A stretch of 64,000 nt of DNA from NCBI GenBank assembly GCA_900318065.1, contig ONIY01000024.1:1-64000 (forward strand). Reading direction: 5' to 3'. Origin of the DNA: an uncultured Prevotellaceae bacterium. GTDB lineage: Bacteria > Bacteroidota > Bacteroidia > Bacteroidales > Muribaculaceae. The notes below the pieces were generated by a model. It made no database searches, was not told the origin of the DNA, and saw only the letters and a program-made list of their open reading frames with translations. Positions 11,358-60,574 of this stretch are shown here, piece by piece. The position numbers and the translations under genes are program-made. Position 1 is the first letter of the stretch. Every line of letters starts with the position of its first letter.

Positions 11358-12962
11358 TTAGTTCCCCAGCAAGATATTGTAAATGACGGTGATGTCGGTG
11401 CTGGTTACTTGTCCGTCTCCGTTCACGTCGCTGGTGTCGTAATAGGTCATGTCGCTATGCAGCAGGTAGTTGTAGATGCAGGTGATGTCGACGCTGGTAA
11501 CCTCTCCGTCGCCATTCACATCGCCAACAACCACAGCGTTAGGATCAAATCCCAGCTTCTGGTCCATCCATGCCAGTCGCTGTGAGATCCATTGCTTCAA
11601 GTGGCTCACCTCATCGTTGAAGTTCTGAGCAACGTAATAGTTGGGCCACACATACTGTCCCCACCTGGGCCATGCCTGGCTGTTACGCGTCATAGCGCCT
11701 CCCGAGGTGAGCTGTGTCGCCATCGAGTCGATCTTCTCCATGATGCGGTCTTCGCGCATGTTGGAGCGACGGCACTGTGCCCAGCGGTTCTTGAGCAGGT
11801 TCTGATAATAGGGGTCCTTGTTGAGTTTATACCACCAGAATGGCACAAGTTGGGTGTCACCATTGCTGTTGAGCACATCGTTGTTCTCATAAATCCAGGT
11901 GTTGGTGTACCAGCCCTGGTAGTAGTCGCTGTTGCCATAGGCGATATTGAAGTCCCAGAGCACCATCTTGAAGCGTGGGTCAACACTGTCGCGGCGCTTG
12001 TAAATCTTAGAGCTCAGGCGATAGCCGTCAACGTTGTGCGACAACTCCTGCGCAATCTGGAAGTCGACAAACGACATCACGTCCATATACTTGCGATAGC
12101 CCACCTCGGGGTCGGTATAGTTGGACGAGTTGAGGGCATTTTCCATCACGTCGACCTGGCCGGTGATATAGTTATACTGCGTCTCGGTCAAGTCCTCATA
12201 TTCGGGCTCCTTGAACTGGTAGTTGATATATCGGTTGTTGAGCCACTGGCCGTTCTTTGTCATGGGGTGATACTTAGAGGTGTAGGTCACCTCGTCGGTG
12301 CGGTCCACCTCGAGCAGATAGCCACCGGTGAGCTCATCGCCCTCCTCGCCTGGGTCGTCGAGATTCAGTCGCTGCTTGCCCTTGGTGGGCAGCTCGCACA
12401 TGATGTAGATGCCGTAGTAGGTGCCATCGAGGAATAGCTCGCAGTACTTGCCTTGCGGGCAGAACTCCATCCATGGCCGCGAGAGCTCAAAGGCGAGCAG
12501 GTCGCGCATCATGCTCTTGTCGCTGTAAGGCGCAAGGATTGCCCAGTTGTTGTCCTTTCCCATTCCCAGGATTTTCACCTTTTCCTTGGTGCCTCCGTCC
12601 TCGAGCGGTGCGTTGAGCGGACGGAACGAGTAGGGCTTCTTGTCGCTGGAAGTGAACGAAGAGTTGCCGCGATACTTTAGCGCCACATATCCCTCATAGT
12701 CAACGGTTTGACCAGGATGAGCCACGGTGTCGGCATAGTTTATCTCGCCATCTCCGTTGTGAATGATTTTCAGTCGGGCAGTGATGCGCTCTTCACGGTC
12801 AATAGTCTGGCCGTCTACTTCGAGCCATGCGATGGGAAGATTGGTTTGAGTGAGTTGCACATTCTCATTGTCGGGTGGATAGTTAGGGTTCCACCACCAC
12901 TTTGCCTGAACAGTAGATGTTGCCACGAGCAGGAACAGGGCAAATAGTAGTTGTTTCTTCAT
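11358..12962 (-). CDS. Secreted CotH-kinase-family protein with C-terminal dockerin-like repeats
   Basis: 534 residues with a Sec signal peptide (residues 1-20). The central part is a CotH-type protein kinase domain, with the conserved VLWDFNIAYGNSDYY segment near residue 330. The C-terminus has two calcium-binding dockerin-type loops (GDVNGDGEVTSVDITCIYNY and SDVNGDGQVTSTDITVIYN). Secreted CotH-dockerin proteins are common in gut Bacteroidales; cohesin partners are mostly unknown and no cohesin is in the window. It has its own promoter, divergent from the lysine exporter genes, and a terminator. Confidence 0.88.
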   Translation of the reverse strand: MKKQLLFALFLLVATSTVQAKWWWNPNYPPDNENVQLTQTNLPIAWLEVDGQTIDREERITARLKIIHNGDGEINYADTVAHPGQTVDYEGYVALKYRGNSSFTSSDKKPYSFRPLNAPLEDGGTKEKVKILGMGKDNNWAILAPYSDKSMMRDLLAFELSRPWMEFCPQGKYCELFLDGTYYGIYIMCELPTKGKQRLNLDDPGEEGDELTGGYLLEVDRTDEVTYTSKYHPMTKNGQWLNNRYINYQFKEPEYEDLTETQYNYITGQVDVMENALNSSNYTDPEVGYRKYMDVMSFVDFQIAQELSHNVDGYRLSSKIYKRRDSVDPRFKMVLWDFNIAYGNSDYYQGWYTNTWIYENNDVLNSNGDTQLVPFWWYKLNKDPYYQNLLKNRWAQCRRSNMREDRIMEKIDSMATQLTSGGAMTRNSQAWPRWGQYVWPNYYVAQNFNDEVSHLKQWISQRLAWMDQKLGFDPNAVVVGDVNGDGEVTSVDITCIYNYLLHSDMTYYDTSDVNGDGQVTSTDITVIYNILLGN

Positions 12963-29938: not shown

Positions 29939-30322
29939 TTAATTCTTCACCTGCTTGGTGGTGATTATGGTTCCGTCGGTATAGCGAGTGACCACAATGT
30001 TCAAGCCCTTGAACGGACGACTGCTAACGCGGCCCATCACGTCGATGTACTCAACACTCTCCACCTGAACCGACTGCATAACGCCGTTGATGCCAGTGGG
30101 GATGTCGTTAATCGCGGGGTGATACTTAAACTCGCTCACGTAATAAACTTTAGCCTGGTCATCTTGAGCGCGAGGAGTAACACTCAGAGTGTTTACATCA
30201 CCACTTGTAGGCTCTTCGAGCGATTTCACACGACCATAGTAGTGAACGATATAGTTGGGCTGATAAGCAGTATTACGCTGCAAAATTACAAAAAATAATG
30301 GTAATTTAGTAAACAAATTCAC
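29939..30322 (-). pseudogene. C-terminal remnant of a T9SS-secreted protein
   Basis: The last 110 codons of a secreted protein: an interior segment (QPNYIVHYYGRVKSLEEP) then a type A T9SS sorting domain (YIDVMGRVSSRPFKGLNIVV, TRYTDGTIITTKQVKN). There is no signal peptide; the first dozen codons are AT-rich spacer translated from a GTG. The sorting domain closely resembles the end of the giant DUF4465 protein at 46567. Confidence 0.7.
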
Positions 30323-39643: not shown

Positions 39644-39675
39644 TTTGGTGCTGCCACAAAAAATCACTACCTTTG
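39644..39675 (+). promoter_or_regulatory. Promoter of the cobalamin-riboswitch leader
   Basis: TTTG (39644-39647), a 20-bp spacer, TACCTTTG (39668-39675). Transcription would begin a few bases on, just at the 5' edge of the riboswitch. Confidence 0.75.
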
Positions 39676-39683
39676 CACCGTGA

Positions 39684-39890
39684 TAATGTGGTGGCCAGCA
39701 TGAGCACCCGCTCCACTGCTGGCTGAAAAGGGAACACAGGTGAGAATCCTGGGCAGAACCCGCTGCTGTATTTTCCCTCACTATTGTCGCTTGCCGATTT
39801 TTCCTGAAATTTCGGTCACTGCAAGCCCAGTCTTGCGGGAAGGCCTCAAGGCAAGCGATGGGAATGAGCCAGAAGACCTGCCTCGTTATC
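39684..39890 (+). promoter_or_regulatory. Cobalamin (adenosyl/methylcobalamin) riboswitch
   Basis: Conserved elements in order: AAAAGGGAACACAGGTGAGA (about 39727-39746), ATCCTGGGCAG.ACCCGCTGCTGT (39747-39770) and the B12 box GAGCCAGAAGACCTGCC (39866-39882), with P1/P2-type pairings outside. Spacing and order match the class. A downstream GGCAGG (39922-39927) could pair with the CCTGCC of the box. A terminator-like hairpin follows at 40035-40068. By rule, cobalamin binding should reduce expression of the gene at 40095. Confidence 0.93.
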
Positions 39891-40034
39891 GTTAAAAAAA
39901 TTCATGCTCTCGTGGAATTAGGGCAGGAACACATCGCAGGTTTTCGTGCTATTGCATCAACTTGGCAGCTATAGCTATTGTTGCATACCATTGTAATGGT
40001 AGCACACATTATTATTTTAGGCTTCATTGTGTTT

Positions 40035-40075
40035 CGTTGTTTCACCCCGGGAGTTGAGTGAAATAACGATTTTTA
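40035..40075 (+). terminator. Terminator hairpin, likely riboswitch expression platform
   Basis: CGTTGTTTCAC (40035-40045) pairs with GTGAAATAACG (40058-40068), 11 bp with one G-U, followed by ATTTTTATT. It lies after the riboswitch and 20-27 bases before the ATG, the right place for ligand-controlled termination or for masking the ribosome-binding region. Confidence 0.65.
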
Positions 40076-40094
40076 TTAACATAATTTATTAACA

Positions 40095-43000
40095 ATGAAG
40101 CAACTAAGTTTACTTACCAAGACCTTTGTGCTGATGATTGCCATTGCGGCAATGGCACTGCCCGCACGTGCCGACCGCACAGTCAATCAGCTGCAATTTG
40201 GCAAGCAGACCATCGAGGTTGCTGCCGATGAGGTGATAACCTTCTACGACATGAATGGTTATCAAGGCATCTCATCGTCGAGCAGCAACAACTCGCAGTC
40301 GCTCACCGTGTTCAAGCCCGCCGAGGGAAAAGCTATACAGCTCATTCGCCTATGCCAGCAGCACAAGTGATGTCACAGCTTCTTCCACCTTGCCCAGCGG
40401 CAATGTGCTTGAGAAGCTTGACGGAACCTACGAAAATCTAACCTACACCGCAACCGATGCCTCGGGCATCATCGCGGTGGGTTACCTCTACCGCTATGCC
40501 AAGGCCATCGAAGGCTGGAAGGCTACAGTGAAGTGTATCACCCTCGAAGACATGACCGTGACAGGCGCTTCGAGCAACTACGATGACGTGGTAGCCTCTA
40601 CCACTGCAACCGAGGCTATCAATTTCGCCACTGCTGTGGTCACCGCTTGTGAATGGCATTACCTTCAAGGCAACCACCAATGAGGATGCCATCGACCCAT
40701 TGCAAATGCGTCTATATGCAGGTTCGCAACCATCGTTCAAGGGCGCTACACCCCTGGATGCCACCGTTGCCGCCAACGGCGACGGCTACACCTTCACCCT
40801 GAACCAGCCACTGAGCGAGGGCACCAACGAGTTCTCGATTGCTGGCGAGTTCCTGAGCGAAGTCGCTCCAGGCGCCAAGGCCGCTATTGCCATCACCCAG
40901 ATTGCCACCGCTGGCATGCCCAGTGGCGTGACCCCATTCACCGCCGGCACTCCCGTGGAGGTGGCAAAACCTGCTATCGTGAATATCTCCACCACTCCAC
41001 AAATGATCACCGTGGGCGACGTGCCCTACAACTTCTATGACGACGGTGGCAAGGATGGCAACATCACCCAGGGCTTTGAGGGACAAATCACCTTTGTCCC
41101 CGCCACCGAGGGCAACGCCATCAAGATCGACTTCTCGAAACTCGACCTGTTCAACACCTCGACCGTTGGCCACAACGACGTGTTCAAGTTCTACAACGGC
41201 CGCGAGGTAAATGAGGACAACCTCATCACTACCCTGCTTGATGAGCCTGAGATAGTGAAATCGACTGCCGACGATGGCTCGATGACCGTCTACCTCAAGA
41301 GCACTGCCGGATATCCCAAGAGCGGATGGGAGGCACTGGTGAGCCAGTTCCTGCCAGGCGACATGACCCTTAGCGGCGTTGCTGGCGAGGCAGCGTCGAC
41401 CACCACCGCCTCGGCTGGCGACACCGACGTGCAGATGCTCGTCATCGACGTTCAGACCGACAACACCGCCAACCCCTTGAGTCTCAAGGGCATTAACCTC
41501 ACAACTGCCGATGCCAAGAACATCGCCAAGGCCCGTGCCTACTATCTTGGCAAGAAGAACACCTTCGCCACCACCAATCCATTTGGCGAAGTGGAGGTCT
41601 CCGGCACAAGCATCGCCATCACCGGCGAGAAGGAACTTATTGAGGGGCACAACTATGTGGCTGTAGTTCTCGACATCAACAACGAGGCACAGAACGACGA
41701 GCAGGTCAACCTCTCGCTCGACAATGTGCTCGTGGGCGAGGCCACCCAGGCACCTGCAGCAGCAGTGAGCAACACTATTACTATTAATAATGTGTGCCAC
41801 GCCACTCAGGGCTCTCACAGCCACATCATCAGCGGTCCCTGGACCTTCACCGACACCAAGGGCTACAATGGCAAGTATGAGACTGCCGACGCCGACTACA
41901 TCGTCACCTTCACTCCTGCCGAGGCAGGCACCAAGGCACAAATTAACTTCTCGGCATTCGACGTTTACTACTCCAACTCAAGCTATGGCACCAAGGCTGT
42001 GTTTGAGATTTACAGCGGCACCGAGGTAAACAGCGCCAACCTGCTGTGGAGCCTGCAGGATGCCAGCCAGAGTTCTACCGGTCCTGGACAAATTCTGCGT
42101 TCGCAGAGCGCCGACGGCTCACTCACCATTCGCTTCAACCCCAAGACCACTAGCAGCTACTATGCTGGCACCGGTTGGACCGCTACAGTGCAGCCATTCC
42201 AGAACCACGACATGACGGTTAAGAATGTAACCGTTAACCAAACCAGCACTGCCGAACTCGCTCCCGGTGCAACTGGCGCTCAGCTCATCGACTTCAACGT
42301 CGAGACCGAAGGCACCCTCACCACCAAGAGCATCAGCAAGATAAACCTTGACCTCAAGGGCAGCGAGAATGCCTTGACCAAGGTGAGCGTGCTCTACAAC
42401 AGCGAGAACGACTTTGCCAGCGCAGTAGCATTTGGCAGCGTGGAGAATCCCACACAAAGCGCGATTGAGATTACTGGCGAACAGGCTCTCGCCGAGGCAG
42501 CCAACTACTTCTGGGTAACCGTCGACGTGAAGACCGACGCCGAGGCCGAGGCTCAAGTCGACGCCAAGCTCATCTCTATCACCGATGCCGCTGGCGAGGT
42601 TACCACCGTTGAAAACGGTGACCCCGAGGGCGAGCGCGTGGTGAAGTACATCTACCTGCTTGAACCTGGCGACAACGTGGTTGTTGTCACCAATCCTCTC
42701 ATGTTCTACGACGACGGCGGTGCCGACGGCAAGGTCTCTAAGGGCCTCAAGGGCAACGTGGTCTTCGTGCCTGGACGTGAGAACTGCTCTATCGAAATCG
42801 ACACTAAGGACACCTTCTCGATTGGCTCGGGCAAGATGATGGTCTACAGTGGCAGCGAAGCTCTCCAAGAGAACATCTTGGGCAAGACCACTGGCTACAG
42901 CACAACTACCGGTCCTGCCAATCTCGTGAGCAAAGCCGAAGACGGCAAGATGCTCATCACCTACGAGGGCAACAGCACAGCTACCACCCTCGACGGATGG

Positions 43001-46000
43001 GCTATCGAGGTGAAACTTCACGAGAAGACTCCATATGCCATCGAGACTGTGGAGGCAACTCCCGAGAACGACAACGTGAACCGCAGCATGACCGACGCGC
43101 TAATGCAGCAACTCAAGGTCAACGTGAGCGGCGACAAGGAGCCCATCACCATCAACAGCGTGAAGTTCACCACTGCTGGCACTACCAACATGGGCGACAT
43201 CGCAGCTGCCAGCCTATATTTCACAAGCCACACCGCCAACTTCGACAACACCAATAAAGTGGCATCACTCACCACCGTTGCCGAGGGCGAGAACGTGATA
43301 ACACTTGACACACCTCTCGAGATTGCCGACAATGGCGACTACTACCTGTGGCTCACCTATGACGTGACTGCCGACGCTGCCACTGGCAACAAGCTTGCAG
43401 CACAGGCACTCACCCTCACTCAGGGCGAGAACACCATCCAGGTTACCGGCGACGCTGCCGAGCGTGAGGTGGTAGCTGGTATCAAGGGCACCTATATCAT
43501 TGGCTCAAGCGATGAGGCCGACTTCCCAACCTTTGCCGCCGCTACCGCTGCCATGGCAAATGGCGTGGAAGGCGCTGTGCGCTTTGAGGTGGAAGACGGC
43601 ACCTATGCCGAGTGTGTAAACATCAGCAAGGTGCGCGGCACCAGCGAGCAGAACACCGTTACCTTCGTGAGCAAGAGTGGCGACCGCAGCAAGGTGATTA
43701 TCACTGGCGGCACCTACAGCACTCCCCCCTATGGCGAGATGAAGAAGGGCATGGTATTCGTTGAGACAACACCATGGGTAACCTTCGAGAGCATGAGCTT
43801 CGTGCCTCAGAGCCAGTCTTACCCCTATGCCGTGCACATCTACAACCAGAGCCGCCACTTCACCCTCAAGGACTCTTACCTCAAGGCCGAGCTCGTGACC
43901 AGCGGCTACAGCGGCATGAACTTGTTCAAGAGCGAGAACGTGGGCACTCTGGAAGACACTGGTGGCATGAACAATGACTACCTCACCATCGACGGCAACG
44001 AATTCTATGGTGGCTACATCGCAATAGGTGCTACTGGCCCTGGTCCAGTGGCTGTGCCCGACGCGCTCAACTATGTGATCACCGGCAACACCATTTCGGA
44101 GGCCCGCAGCAAGGGTATCTATATCACCGACGTGGAGAACGCTCTCATTGAGAACAACACCATCAAGCAGAGCACCTCTACTACCAGTAACTACAACTCG
44201 ATTGACATCTACCGCAACACCGGCAACCTGGTGGTGCGCAACAACGTGATAACCCACACTCACGACTATTACTCGCAAGGCATCTACATGCGTCAGGGCA
44301 ATGAGGGCCGCAGCGAGAATGAGCCAATGCTCGTTTACAACAACAGCATCGTTATCGCCAACGCAGCGAGCGGTAGTGTGGCAGGCATCCAAGTGACTGC
44401 CGACTCTAAGAACATCGCGTTCTACAACAACACCGTGCGCGTGAGCGGTAGCAACGCCTACGTTTACTACACCGCTGGTAGTGGCAACCGCTACACTGGT
44501 ATCAAGATGCAGAACAACCTGCTGCAGAACTTCACCACAAGCGGCAAACTTGCCTACATCAACAGTGCCGACGATGCCAAGGCGTTGATCATGAACAACA
44601 ACGCCCTGTATGCTGCCTCGGGCACTCTCTTTGAGAACCATGCAGCAACTATCGACGACCTCAACGCACTCGACAACAAGCAAGACAACTTTGTTGAGCA
44701 GGCCGAGTTCTTGAGCGACATCGACAACCACCTGCTCAGCGCTGGCAACCTCAACGCTGGTGTTCCCGTCGACTTCATCACCACCGATGCCGAGGGCAAC
44801 GAGCGCAATGCACAGGCTCCTACCATTGGCGCCTATGAGTTTGCCGAGGTGGTAGTCGAGAAGCCCGAGATTGCCGAGGGCTACCCCACTGTTACCGACA
44901 TCACCGAGACCACTGCTACCGTTAAGAGCAAGTGGACCGTGGGTGGCAAGCTATATTGCAAGGTTGAGGAAGTTACCGAGCCCGAGGGCAAAGCACCTAA
45001 GGCCGTAACTGCCAGCGACCTGCTCGAGACCGAGGGCGTCGACATCACTGCCGACACCGAGGTGAACACAGCACTCACCGACCTCACTCCCGCCACTACC
45101 TATAAGGCCTACCTCATGGTAGTGAGCCCACTCGACGAGCAGAGCGACGTGGTCGAGACCCAGGAGTTCACCACCCTGCGCCACATCGAGCCTCTCACCG
45201 CTACCATCGACAAGGTTGCCGCCACTATCAATGCCGGCGAGACTGCTACCATCACACCTGTTGTGGCTGGTGGCGACGAGCCTTACACCTACACTTGGAC
45301 CGACCAGATGAACGAGGTAGTGGGCAACGAGGCAACTCTGAGCGCATCACCTGAGTATTCTTGGGGTTATCGCCTCACCGTGACAAGTGCCGACGGCCAG
45401 ACCGTCACTGCCAAGACTGGCGTGCGCGTGCTGGGCGATGCCGTCACTGCATCGATGGACGACAACTACCTTGACGACGAGAGCCACTGGGCTTATGACC
45501 CAACTACCGCAACCTCGGTTGAAGACGGCTTCTACAGCGGCTCTTACTACTTCAACAGCGGCGCTTATCCAAGCTGGAACTACTGGTATGGCTACTCGCT
45601 CAGCAACGAGACTGCCACCAGCTATGCTACCCTCAACGACCAGTGGCACAGCGCCGTGGGCGAGGGTCACAACGGCTCAAGCAACTACTGCATCTCATTC
45701 CCCGAGGGACAGTTCATCGAGATCACCAACAGTGCCGATGGCGACGTGCTCAAGGGTGCCTACGTGAGCAACGCAGCCTATGCCTACAATGGCATGGCAC
45801 ATGGCGACGGCTTTGCCACCGCATTCTCGCAGGGTTCTTGGTTCAAGCTCACAGCAGTGGGATTTGACGCCGAGGGCGAGGAGACTGCTCGCACCGACTT
45901 CTATCTCGCCGACTACCGCAGCGAGAAAGCACTCGACCACTACATCCTCGACACATGGCAGTGGATGGACCTGCGTCCTCTGGGCAAGGTTGCCAAGGTA

Positions 46001-46567
46001 CGCTTCCTCATCGACGGCAGCGACAAGGGGCAGTATGGCCTCAACACCGCAGCCTATTTTGCTCTCGACGACTTCAACTGCGAGCGCGACATCATTGCCG
46101 AGGAGATTCGCATCTTCAAGATTGGCAATTGGGCACTCAACCTGAAGGAAATCTTCACCGACCTCGAGGAGGACGGCTCTACAATCACCTATTCGCTCGA
46201 AGACCTGGGTGAGGCAGCTCCTATTGCTGGTGCTCCCGTCATGCACGACATTGAGAGCGAGGGCATCGACATCAATATCGACGCCGACGGCATGCTCAAC
46301 GTTAACGGAAAGGTTGACGACAGCAGCCGAGCAGTGATTGTGGGCGCTACACAAAGGGGCAAGACTCAGTATGCCAAGCTGTTGATTTACATCGACAACG
46401 CCACTGGCATCGAAGGCATTATCGTGGAGAACGGTAAGCAGGTAGAGTCGCGCCAGTATGTGAACGTTGCAGGACAGGTGAGCGACCGTCCTTTCAAGGG
46501 CGTGAACATCATCATGACCCGCTACACCGACGGCACTACAACCTCGGTGAAGACCATCATCAAGTGA
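40095..46567 (+). pseudogene. Giant riboswitch-controlled T9SS cargo with DUF4465 domain, two frame changes near the 5' end
   Basis: About 2,150 codons. Signal peptide MKQLSLLTKTFVLMIAIAAM (cleaved near PARA). Then three or four CUB-like jelly-roll domains (YNFYDDGGKDGNITQGFEG; LMFYDDGGADGKVSKG) alternating with beta-sandwich modules to about 43480; a right-handed beta-helix (43490-44850; NNTIKQSTSTTSNYN, NNVITHTHDYYSQG); Fn3-like (44880-45180) and PKD-like (45190-45440) domains; DUF4465 (45450-46100; SWNYWYGYSLSN, DFNCERD); and a type A T9SS sorting domain (RPFKGVNIIMTRYTDGT). Frame moves +1 at about 40335-40345 and +1 again at about 40645-40650; the rest is one open frame of 1,972 codons. 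With both changes corrected it is a full-length protein. The B12 riboswitch and DUF4465 suggest cobalamin capture. Confidence 0.82.
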
Positions 46568-46664
46568 TGAGACACTACCGGATGTGGGCACCAGCCTAAA
46601 GTGTCCACATCCACAATTAATTCTGAACAATTCAGATTGCAATTATTTATATAGTAACACAAGA

Positions 46665-46693
46665 AGCCACCTCGACGCGATGCCGAGGTGGCT
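46665..46693 (+). terminator. Intrinsic terminator after the DUF4465 giant
   Basis: Perfect 10-bp stem AGCCACCTCG / CGAGGTGGCT, then TTTGCTTTCTTTTTC. Confidence 0.85.
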
Positions 46694-46740
46694 TTGCTTT
46701 CTTTTTCGCCACTGGTGGTGCTACCCTGCTATTGAAGGTG

Positions 46741-58192: not shown

Positions 58193-60574
58193 TCACTTAA
58201 CCATAACCTTGCGGCCGGTGTTGGTGATGTAGATGCCGCGTGTGAGCTTGCTGGCGTCAACTCGGCGTCCCATGAGGTCGTAGTACTCGGTGGGTTGCTC
58301 GTCGCTGGCAGTGATGGTATTGATGCCAGTGGTGAGGTCGTACCAAGTGATGGGGCTCTCGTGGGTCTCGCCGCCACCGGTGTAGATGCTCTTCACGCCA
58401 ATGGCATCCCAGTCCTCAATGCCAGGAGCATGCACATAGACCGACTCACCGCCTTGCATTACCTCCCAGTAGTCGGTGTAGAGGTAAGGAATGATGGTCA
58501 TGTCCTCGGTGGCATACTCATAATACTGAGCCTCGAGCGTTACAGGGCTCTCCACGCCACCAACCTTCTTGTAAATCTCATAGCTGAGCTGGCTTGCAAA
58601 GATGGGGTTGCCATCCACATCCTCGAGTGGGATGTTGAGCTCGAGCAGGTAGCCGTAGCTTCCGTTGAGCGAGAAGTTGAGGATCTGTGGTGCGGCAGGT
58701 GTGGCAGGCACATCGTTGGCACGAGTGATTACCACGTCTCTAAACACGTCGGCATCCTCGCTGTAGGTCTCGCCCTCCAGCTCGTAGGTGCTGGTCGAGG
58801 TGAATCCCTCGGGCGAGGTGAAGGTGTCGGTCTCGGGGTTGTAGGCAAAGGTAGCGCCATTGAACACGATTTCCATGTCGATGCCCCATGCATTGAAGTT
58901 GCCCAGGAAGTGCTGTGGGAATTCTACCATGTTGTCTCTGGTGACAGTGCCCTTGATCCATGCCTCGGGAATCCACTTGCTGATGCCCTGGATGTAGACA
59001 TCGCTGCCATAGAATCCCACCTTAACCTCGGCAGTGTAGTCCTCGGGGGAATCCTCGCCAAACTGCAGGTCTTGTGCTGTCATAGAGTAGGTTTCTGTCT
59101 CCAGGTCTTCGGGAGGAGTAACGGGAGCGTTGCCTTCCACGTCATACCAGCCAATCTGTGAGAAGTTCTCTTCTCCACCACCGGCATAGACGCTGCGCAC
59201 GCCAATGCGGCGCAAGCCGTCGTTCACATTATACACTACCACGAGTTGGCCATTGGCAAGGAAGTTGATGTCGTCGCCAAAGGTGTAGGGGATAGTGGTC
59301 ATGTCCTCGTCAAAGCCGTAGAGCTCGGCGCTGAAGATATAGGGCTCGGCATCGCCGCCATAGTCGCAGAAGAGCTGATAGCCCAACTTGCTCGTGAGCA
59401 GTGGGTTACCATCGGCATCGGTGGTGGGGACATCGAGCATCACATAGCCAAAGCCATCGTCGGCCGAGTACTCATAGTAGAGCACCTGAGGATCGGCAGG
59501 TGTAGCAGGCTCGTCGGCAATGAGAGTCAACTTGGCGTTGCCCAGCAGGTCATACCATTCTACTTCCTCGCCCGATGCCGAGATTGAATACCACTGCTGT
59601 GCCACCAGTTCGCCAGTGCTTTCATCAAGGGTCATCACCAGTGGAGTGGCCTCGAGAGTCGTCGCCTGGCAGCCCATGAAATAGAGGGGATAGGCCTCGC
59701 CCTCATAGATGAAGATGCCAAAGTACTGACCGTTGTCAAACACATAGTTGTTGCCGTCGCGGTGGCCCTTCACCCATGCCAGGGGCAGATAGGTGCACAG
59801 ACCCTGAACATAGATGTCGTCGCCGTCAAAGCCCACCTTGGCAGTGCCCACCAGTGGGTCGCCCTCATACCATTCGTTGTCGCCGGTCAGACCCATATAG
59901 CAGCCTGTGAGAGCATACTCCTGAGTCTCAAGGCCTTCGGGAGCCTCAACGGTGTCGCCGTCGGGGACGATAGAGAGCGAGCTGTCATACTGGTATACAA
60001 TCTGCAAACCCTCATTGCCCACATTCTCGAGGATGTAGCACACTTGGTCTTGCGAGAGCACCAGCGTGCCAGCCTCGGCATTGTAGTTGAACACAGCGTC
60101 GATCACTTGGGCCGAGCCACCATCTACAGGATAGAAATAGAGGTCATAGCCCGAGTAATTGCCGTAATACTGCATGGGGAACGTCACTGTGGCGCCGTCG
60201 CTGCTTATCGTGCCCTTGATCCATGCCTCGGGCAGATAAACACAGAATCCCTGCAGATAGACATCATTACCGTCGATTCCCAACTTGAGAGGACGGCTCA
60301 CCTGCTCCCATCCGCTACCGTTGTAGATGTAGCCCAAGAGGCGATAGCTCATGACCTGGAGGTCGCTGGGAGGAGTCACCACTTCGCCGGTTGCCTTGAC
60401 AGCTGCCTTAGTGGCATTGTGGATTTTAGGAACAATGAAAGTGTGCTGCTTGGGCGACAACACCTCTTTCTCGGTGGGTCGGGGCAGGGGGGCAAGTTTC
60501 TTACCCTGCACCTGCTGTGCGCTCATCGTCATCGTCATGATGACTGCCATGAGCAATAGAGTAATCTTTTTCAT
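58193..60574 (-). CDS. Large modular T9SS-secreted protein, unknown function
   Basis: 793 residues: signal peptide (MKKITLLLMAVIMTMTMSAQ), then three repeats of a module that reads SYRLLGY... VYLQGFCVYLPEAWIKGT, DIYVQGLCTYLPLAWVKG, DVYIQGISKWIPEAWIKGT, interleaved with a Fn3-like module (PATPADPQVLYYEYSADDGFG; PATPAAPQILNFSLNGSYG). It ends in a T9SS type A sorting domain (YYDLMGRRVDASKLTRGIYI). Such modular surface proteins are common in Prevotella/Muribaculaceae; ligands unknown. Promoter (60642-60673) and terminator make it a single-gene unit. Confidence 0.85.
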   Translation of the reverse strand: MKKITLLLMAVIMTMTMSAQQVQGKKLAPLPRPTEKEVLSPKQHTFIVPKIHNATKAAVKATGEVVTPPSDLQVMSYRLLGYIYNGSGWEQVSRPLKLGIDGNDVYLQGFCVYLPEAWIKGTISSDGATVTFPMQYYGNYSGYDLYFYPVDGGSAQVIDAVFNYNAEAGTLVLSQDQVCYILENVGNEGLQIVYQYDSSLSIVPDGDTVEAPEGLETQEYALTGCYMGLTGDNEWYEGDPLVGTAKVGFDGDDIYVQGLCTYLPLAWVKGHRDGNNYVFDNGQYFGIFIYEGEAYPLYFMGCQATTLEATPLVMTLDESTGELVAQQWYSISASGEEVEWYDLLGNAKLTLIADEPATPADPQVLYYEYSADDGFGYVMLDVPTTDADGNPLLTSKLGYQLFCDYGGDAEPYIFSAELYGFDEDMTTIPYTFGDDINFLANGQLVVVYNVNDGLRRIGVRSVYAGGGEENFSQIGWYDVEGNAPVTPPEDLETETYSMTAQDLQFGEDSPEDYTAEVKVGFYGSDVYIQGISKWIPEAWIKGTVTRDNMVEFPQHFLGNFNAWGIDMEIVFNGATFAYNPETDTFTSPEGFTSTSTYELEGETYSEDADVFRDVVITRANDVPATPAAPQILNFSLNGSYGYLLELNIPLEDVDGNPIFASQLSYEIYKKVGGVESPVTLEAQYYEYATEDMTIIPYLYTDYWEVMQGGESVYVHAPGIEDWDAIGVKSIYTGGGETHESPITWYDLTTGINTITASDEQPTEYYDLMGRRVDASKLTRGIYITNTGRKVMVK

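What the first reader, a model, noticed from the sequence alone, without database searches (positions are those of the whole stretch)
39644..46693. Cobalamin riboswitch controls a giant secreted DUF4465 protein: candidate new B12-capture protein
The sequence shows, in order, a TTTG/TAnnTTTG promoter, a complete cobalamin riboswitch with B12 box, a terminator-like hairpin, and a single large cargo with signal peptide, CUB-like domains, a beta-helix, DUF4465 and a T9SS sorting domain, closed by its own terminator. From memory, DUF4465 defines BtuH, a small surface lipoprotein of gut Bacteroidetes that binds cobamides and is itself riboswitch-regulated. Here the domain sits in a protein of about 2,150 residues exported by T9SS rather than as a small lipoprotein, with no BtuB next to it. 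I infer a long surface filament that scavenges B12 or binds mucin/host B12 carriers.
Basis: partly seen in the sequence, partly recalled or inferred. Interest (0 to 1): 0.85.

Follow-up and report, generated by a model that had tools for sequence, protein, structure and literature searches.

The report
B12-switched giant surface protein family
A vitamin B12-sensing RNA switch sits in front of a giant, probably exported surface protein that carries a known B12-binding domain; the family recurs in gut and rumen bacteria, some members keep the switch but lack that domain, and the copy in this assembly is broken near its start.

Summary
Two corrections. As assembled the gene is interrupted: two frame breaks between 40095 and 40649. 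And DUF4465 is BtuJ, not BtuH; published work shows B12 binding by DUF4465 proteins. The domain models confidently as BtuJ and keeps the four hydrogen-bonding residues published as conserved between BtuJ1 and BtuJ2.

Intact relatives (about 1,800-2,360 aa) occur in Muribaculaceae, Prevotellaceae and Bacteroides salyersiae. In 148 genomes of the family, 26 genes carry the giant's beta-helix: a cobalamin riboswitch lies directly before 25 and heads the btu operon of the 26th. Some relatives read btuB-btuG-btuH-giant. Four of the 26 have no DUF4465, in gene or genome, yet keep the riboswitch; so the scaffold itself belongs to the B12 regulon. In the window's genome the scaffold modules were found only in this gene.

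Best reading: a type IX-exported, surface-anchored BtuJ variant that captures cobamides for BtuBGH. The scaffold's ligand is unknown. DUF4465 proteins with C-terminal sorting tails are already in print; in the searches and parts of papers I saw, the giant architecture and the DUF4465-less riboswitch-headed scaffold are not.

The parts
39644..39675 (+). Bacteroidetes-type promoter pattern TTTG-N20-TAnnTTTG
   Evidence: exact match; 13 in window against 1.2 expected in shuffles; no transcript data
39672..39899 (+). Cobalamin riboswitch aptamer (RF00174)
   Evidence: 94.2 bits, 1-189/189; one of two in the genome
40034..40077 (+). Leader hairpin and U-run, terminator-like, 17 nt before the ATG
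   Evidence: similar hairpin in close relatives, 4 of 9 consensus pairs with a change on both sides in 14 sequences; not flagged by the pattern scan
40095..40343 (+). Signal-peptide-like start and first module, frame 1 of the broken 5' part
   Evidence: matches residues 1-83 of intact relative L059 at 93%
40339..40644 (+). Second piece of the broken 5' part, in another frame
   Evidence: matches residues 112-213 of L059 at 81%
40649..46567 (+). Open remainder of the giant gene (1972 codons and stop), third frame
   Evidence: dN/dS 0.11-0.20 against 9 relatives
40994..43468 (+). Three CUB-like plus BNR_assoc_N units
   Evidence: three profile matches (422, 168, 117 bits), the only ones in the genome; Pfam BNR_assoc_N
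43475..44851 (+). Right-handed beta-helix module
   Evidence: only match in the genome, 635 bits; model pLDDT 92.6
45572..46075 (+). DUF4465 (BtuJ) domain; codons of conserved contacts at 45779 (Y), 46043 (N), 46046 (T), 46055 (Y)
46424..46558 (+). Sorting-type C-terminal tail, shared with the genome's small BtuJ-like protein
   Evidence: 51% over 45 residues; below threshold for Pfam and NCBIfam tail models
46664..46694 (.). 13-bp hairpin between the giant gene and a convergent YitT-type gene
   Evidence: listed on the - strand

Best explanation
The gene family encodes a giant, type IX-secreted, surface-anchored member of the B12-uptake regulon, a BtuJ variant. When cellular cobamide is low, the riboswitch lets transcription run past the leader hairpin. 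The protein is exported and held by its C-terminus, so that the DUF4465 domain lies near the outer membrane, binds cobamide in its conserved pocket and hands it to the BtuG/BtuH/BtuB machinery, which is encoded at another locus here and in the same operon in some relatives. The long N-terminal scaffold reaches outward and probably binds something that brings B12 near the cell. Shown here: riboswitch linkage, DUF4465 fold prediction and contact residues, operon linkage in relatives, conservation of the scaffold and its restriction to this gene in this genome, a T9SS translocon gene (sprA). Inferred: direction of regulation, B12 binding by this protein, export and anchoring, hand-over, scaffold ligand. 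The copy in this assembly is interrupted near its 5' end and would not give an exported full-length protein as assembled.
For: Riboswitch. Family: of 26 beta-helix genes in 148 genomes a riboswitch lies directly upstream on the same strand in 25 (16 of 16; 4 of 4; G000, G005, G015, G042, G060) and heads the btu operon of the 26th (G012). GTDB relatives: 40 of 52 loci with an ORF of 1800 aa or more have it within 800 nt upstream, 8 farther upstream, 4 none upstream in the DNA held; without the 12 contigs that also served to train the model: 30, 8 and 2 of 40. DUF4465; model pLDDT 93.2; all 9 Foldseek matches at E <= 0.001 are DUF4465 structures, among them B12-bound 9hmu and BtuJ1. Contacts Tyr146, Asn241, Thr242, Tyr245 of BtuJ1 all present. 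Operon: btuB-btuG-btuH-giant in 6 of 52 loci, a btuB relative in 10 of 52. sprA 2719 bits. B12-dependent enzymes: methylmalonyl-CoA mutase and an aminomutase subunit.
Against: No binding, expression or localisation data. This copy is broken. Its tail is below the thresholds of the tail models. The Asn contact is kept in only 15 of 21 (A1) and 21 of 28 (A3) aligned domains, the DE-loop Tyr in 23 of 28 of A3; a further halo tyrosine, Tyr97 of BtuJ1, is aligned to a Leu in the window, in a weakly aligned stretch. Four scaffold genes lack DUF4465 altogether, so B12 binding by DUF4465 cannot be the whole function of the family. The genome also has a conventional small BtuJ-like gene in its btu operon, so this one is not needed to fill that slot.
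Confidence: 0.75

Rival explanations
1. The scaffold, not DUF4465, is the functional core: a B12-regulated adhesin or glycan-binding (perhaps glycan-cleaving) protein that places the cell at a source of B12, with DUF4465 a usual but dispensable passenger.
For: Four of 26 scaffold genes have no DUF4465 in gene or genome but keep the riboswitch. The beta-helix keeps its length (443-468 residues in 30 of 30 relatives) but comes in two types that cut across the relationships of the rest of the gene, as expected of a ligand-facing part. Its model is nearest to GH136 lacto-N-biosidases, TM-score 0.56-0.59 over the query for LnbX, TnX and BsaX.
Against: The beta-helix matches are at 13-15% identity and shared by many beta-helix proteins; no solved sequence relative at E <= 0.05. 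22 of 26 scaffold genes do carry DUF4465.
Confidence: 0.35
2. The giant mimics the host receptor cubilin: its CUB-like units bind the host B12 carrier and DUF4465 takes the vitamin.
For: The profile of the CUB-like unit finds cubilin CUB domains (3kq4) as its best solved relative, E 0.0032 for the whole chain.
Against: The best single cubilin domain has an independent E-value of 0.61, and chance-like antibody chains follow. CUB is a common domain. Nearest relatives come from rumen and other forestomach samples (titles).
Confidence: 0.05
3. In this organism the locus is a decaying remnant without function.
For: Two frame breaks with missing residues in the 5' part.
Against: The remaining 1972 codons are open and show dN/dS 0.11-0.20 against 9 relatives, which mostly records the time before any break; an assembly error in a 97-contig genome cannot be excluded.
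Confidence: 0.4

Closest known systems
BtuJ1/BtuJ2 of Bacteroides thetaiotaomicron (DUF4465, PF14717, IPR027828)
   Same: Same domain, predicted fold and conserved contacts; cobalamin riboswitch; accessory to btuB/btuG loci
   Different: BtuJ1/2 are small lipoproteins (PMC12751083); here the domain is near the C-terminus of a giant with CUB/BNR units and a beta-helix and a sorting-type tail
DUF4465 proteins with a C-terminal sorting motif (229 of 824 with IPR026444, PMC12751083 section 8)
   Same: DUF4465 plus an extracellular sorting tail; that IPR026444 is the T9SS tail is recalled
   Different: The section names no size, scaffold or riboswitch; the giants may be among those 229, I could not check
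BtuH (BtuH2, 7BIZ)
   Same: Accessory cobamide binder of the same regulon, with N-terminal extra domains (PKD/Ig-like)
   Different: Another B12-binding domain; a separate gene in this genome and in relatives' operons
BtuG1 (BtuGH fusion) of B. thetaiotaomicron
   Same: Example of a B12-binding domain fused to another module in the same regulon
   Different: Propeller plus BtuH domain, lipoprotein; no scaffold of the present kind

Membership tests
Cobalamin riboswitch (RF00174) | Match above the gathering score over the full model | tested here: met
   94.2 against 31.5 bits, 1-189/189
Cobalamin riboswitch (RF00174) | B12-dependent change of expression | not testable with these tools
   needs transcripts
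DUF4465 / BtuJ domain family | Pfam PF14717 above gathering score, whole model | tested here: met
   178.6-185.5 against 25 bits
DUF4465 / BtuJ domain family | Augmented jelly-roll fold of BtuJ | tested here: met
   predicted model pLDDT 93.2, best matches 9hmu, 4jqr, 9qpm/9fct
DUF4465 / BtuJ domain family | Conserved B12-contact residues (DE Tyr; HI-loop Asn, Thr, Tyr) | tested here: met
   all four present in the window; BtuJ1 numbering from PMC12751083, mapped by counting along the alignment
DUF4465 / BtuJ domain family | Cobalamin binding | not testable with these tools
   shown for other members in PMC13398666 and PMC12751083
BtuJ sensu stricto (lipoprotein of a btu locus) | Lipoprotein signal | tested here: not met
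   start at 40095 shows no lipobox cysteine by eye; no predictor run
BtuJ sensu stricto (lipoprotein of a btu locus) | Next to btuB/btuG | tested here: not met
   no btuB or btuG relative in the window; met in some relatives
BtuH | BtuH C-terminal domain (7BIZ) | tested here: not met
   solved-structure search of the frame finds six DUF4465 sequences and no 7biz/8blw at E <= 0.1; the own BtuH protein finds only a dockerin elsewhere in the window
T9SS cargo | Match to a sorting-tail model | tested here: inconclusive
   window tail none; of 4 distant giants 1 above and 2 below the Pfam cut-off, 1 no match; tail shared with own small BtuJ-like protein
T9SS cargo | T9SS present in genome | tested here: met
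   SprA 2719 bits; other components not searched

The most novel reading that the evidence does not exclude
The CUB/BNR/beta-helix scaffold is a new class of B12-regulon surface protein in its own right: it binds a B12 source or carrier through an exchangeable beta-helix, and BtuJ is usually, but not always, fused to it.
Probability: 0.35. Interest if true: 0.8.

Novelty: new variant of a known kind. Interest (0 to 1): 0.62.

Why it matters
The B12-capture accessories characterised so far in gut Bacteroidetes are small surface lipoproteins. A giant, probably T9SS-exported relative shared by Muribaculaceae, Prevotellaceae and a Bacteroides, sometimes the last gene of a btuB-btuG-btuH operon, would show that the same need is met with another surface architecture. 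The scaffold-only, riboswitch-headed genes pose a directly testable question: what, other than free cobamide, is worth binding when B12 runs short? Named cultured species hold giants (Bacteroides salyersiae, Hoylesella marshii, Prevotella pallens, Xylanibacter muris), so it can be tested.

Tried and rejected
DUF4465 = BtuH: rejected.

Finding riboswitches by regular expression in the 80 loci: too strict, it missed the genome's own btu riboswitch in L005; replaced by covariance model R1. R1 was trained on 16 sequences. 12 of the 52 giant loci are contigs that also gave training rows (judged by equal contig length): 10 of the 40 with a riboswitch within 800 nt, and L109 and L111 of the 4 without, which are cut inside their btu operon and whose riboswitch is seen in L049 and L048. 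The other two without are L101 and L129. L134's upstream match is a 60-nt fragment at the locus end. L103-L105 are near-copies. In the family set, four of the 16 loci (L156, L159, L161, L162) have the contig lengths of L086, L087, L065 and L061, so the two sets overlap.

Loci with shorter or cut proteins are not in the counts above: of 20 further loci with 327-1333 aa, 8 have the riboswitch within 800 nt, 8 farther, 4 none upstream; 8 more are cut at the 5' end.

Leader terminator over many leaders: 30 of 41 hits, against 39 of 123 mononucleotide shuffles; persuasive only in close relatives, and the consensus energy is small (-2.73 kcal/mol).

Cubilin mimicry: weak. Beta-helix as an enzyme: only generic fold matches. 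Single origin of giants: the DUF4465 tree needs 12 label changes for 'giant', at least 9 forced by well-supported branches, so size was lost or gained several times; the 11 small genus BtuJ-like rows form one well-supported side (100/98). Its rows were chosen by similarity to giants, so it is biased. Three short BtuH hits in L059, L060 and L062 have the length of a dockerin and were not counted. MetH and MetE models: no match in this genome (the MetH control rang in 11 of 14 and the MetE control in 10 of 14 known genomes).
Full report
Place. The window is part of contig C20 of a genome of 2.99 Mb in 97 contigs, 93.85% complete. Titles of the nearest relatives name Muribaculaceae, Prevotellaceae, Porphyromonadaceae and Bacteroidales MAGs from rumen and other animal gut sites, Candidatus Sodaliphilus among them; the window's own taxon is not named and this is inference. 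The gene lies between a CstA-like gene and a convergent YitT-type gene.

Control region. A promoter pattern (39644-39675) overlaps the start of a full-length cobalamin riboswitch (39672-39899, 94.2 bits). A hairpin with a U-run ends 17 nt before the ATG, with a similar hairpin in close relatives. The genome has one other cobalamin riboswitch, at C3:12919-13151. It heads a btu operon: a BtuB relative (TIGR01779 109.5 bits, below its strict cut-off of 599.7), a BtuG-type propeller (PF16819), a BtuH homologue (8blw 209.6 and 7biz 163.2 bits) ending in a dockerin, and a 320-residue DUF4465 protein with a sorting-type tail. 7BIZ is BtuH2 by its paper; BtuG1 carries a fused BtuH domain, and that 8blw is that complex rests on the chain's make-up and one mention of the code in that paper. 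Two B12-dependent enzymes are in the genome: a methylmalonyl-CoA mutase (PF01642 621 bits) and an aminomutase subunit.

The gene. As assembled, the frame that begins with a signal-peptide-like sequence at 40095 stops after 91 codons; two frame breaks with missing residues follow before 40649. The remaining 1972 codons are open, with dN/dS 0.11-0.20 against 9 relatives. In 61 genomes of the genus, 57 have a DUF4465 match and 15, the window's included, have an open frame of 1990-2211 aa around it; 14 intact ORFs were read. Four more look cut at contig ends (549-1326 aa). Intact giants have 1809-2361 residues in the GTDB set.

DUF4465. 178.6-185.5 bits. The AlphaFold2 model on a 28-row alignment has mean pLDDT 93.2; its 9 Foldseek matches at E <= 0.001 are all DUF4465 structures, including B12-bound D5EK51 (9hmu) and BtuJ1. 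The residues that PMC12751083 names as conserved hydrogen-bonding contacts (passages) are all there. Across giants the HI-loop Thr and Tyr are invariant in 28 of 28 rows of A3, the DE-loop Tyr is kept in 23 and the Asn in 21. A further tyrosine named there, Tyr97, is not at the aligned place. PMC13398666 (abstract, results and discussion read) reports B12 binding by divergent DUF4465 proteins and concludes that it is a common function. BtuH is another domain (PMC8941943, passages).

Scaffold. The open frame holds three CUB-like plus BNR_assoc_N units and one beta-helix; searched as profiles, both were found only in this gene in the genome. Intact relatives have a further unit in the 5' part that is broken here (CUB-type motif positions; inference). 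The beta-helix region measures 443-468 residues in 30 of 30 relatives from Muribaculaceae, Prevotellaceae and B. salyersiae. Its model (pLDDT 92.6) is nearest to GH136 lacto-N-biosidases, then PL6 lyases, pectin methylesterases and AlgG, at 10-15% identity. Among 11 close relatives compared, the beta-helix comes in two types, 68-95% identical within and 48-53% between types, which cut across the similarity of the N-terminal and DUF4465 parts (window against L061 and L064: N-terminal 76-77%, DUF4465 88-89%, helix 49-51%). That points to exchange of this segment by recombination.

Regulon and operon. Genus: of the 15 giants, 13 have the riboswitch at their start; in G012 and G029 the order is riboswitch-btuB-btuG-btuH-giant. 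GTDB scan: 300 relatives, best 80 kept. R1 found 71 riboswitches there, all 71 on the strand of the DUF4465 gene. Of 52 loci with an ORF of at least 1800 aa and its 5' end held, 40 have one within 800 nt upstream, 8 farther, 4 none upstream (overlaps and the other 28 loci are told under Tried and rejected). BtuB relatives lie in 17 of 80 loci and 10 of the 52; btuB-btuG-btuH-giant in L109, L111, L116, L128, L129 and L134; riboswitch-btuH-giant in L083, L124 and L130. Family: in 148 genomes, 94 have DUF4465, with open frames mostly either below about 650 or above 1990 aa (two between). The beta-helix occurs in 26 of the 148: 22 in DUF4465 genes, 4 (G081, G147, G157, G187; 1716-1745 aa) in genes without it, whose genomes gave no DUF4465 match (G081 shown with none, the other three absent from the 94). 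All 4 have the riboswitch 171-225 nt upstream on the same strand; so have 16 of 16 others fetched, and G000, G005, G015, G042 and G060; G012 is the operon case. With few riboswitches per genome (1-5), chance cannot explain this (estimate, not a run test).

Reading. The giant works like BtuJ, but with another export route and a dedicated outer scaffold. The surprise is the scaffold without DUF4465 that is still under B12 control. What it binds is open: a glycan, a carrier protein, a B12-producing cell, or cobamide itself.

In print. Searches for BtuH/DUF4465, type IX secretion with vitamin B12 and riboswitch, cobalamin riboswitch/Prevotella/T9SS, BtuG/BtuJ/Sodaliphilus and DUF4465/IPR027828/PF14717 gave two papers centred on the domain. 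[quoted passage not shown] its text has no 'CUB', 'giant' or 'multi-domain'. PMC13398666 has no 'multidomain', 'type IX' or 'fusion'. PMC10404256 and PMC6143338 were seen in passages only, PMC8931616 in a listing only. The library lacks most subscription papers and preprints, and supplements were not readable.

Noticed in passing
window 43475-44851; L056-L070: The beta-helix segment of the giant exists in two types that do not follow the rest of the gene, suggesting exchange of this segment between lineages.
   Followed up: partly
L143, L144, L145, L146: Scaffold genes of about 1,720 aa without DUF4465 that still lie behind a cobalamin riboswitch.
   Followed up: partly
L005 7421-8626; window 11358-12962 (-): A BtuH homologue and a CotH-type protein of this genome both end in a dockerin type I domain; unusual for a B12-binding accessory.
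   Followed up: no
L051 2028-8000; L094; L132: Two cobalamin riboswitches in a row, one before a 463-468 aa DUF4465 protein and one before a giant or another gene.
   Followed up: no
window 29945-30235 (-): A short reading frame carries the same sorting-type tail as the giant, perhaps a remnant of another exported protein.
   Followed up: no
genome G000: No match to full-length MetH or MetE models although methylmalonyl-CoA mutase is present; how this organism makes methionine is open, or the gene lies in a gap.
   Followed up: no
window 58193-60574 (-): A 793-residue frame without any Pfam match at E <= 1e-5.
   Followed up: no
L083: Record titled Clostridium sp. carries a typical Bacteroidetes riboswitch-btuH-giant locus; probably a mislabelled MAG.
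   Followed up: no
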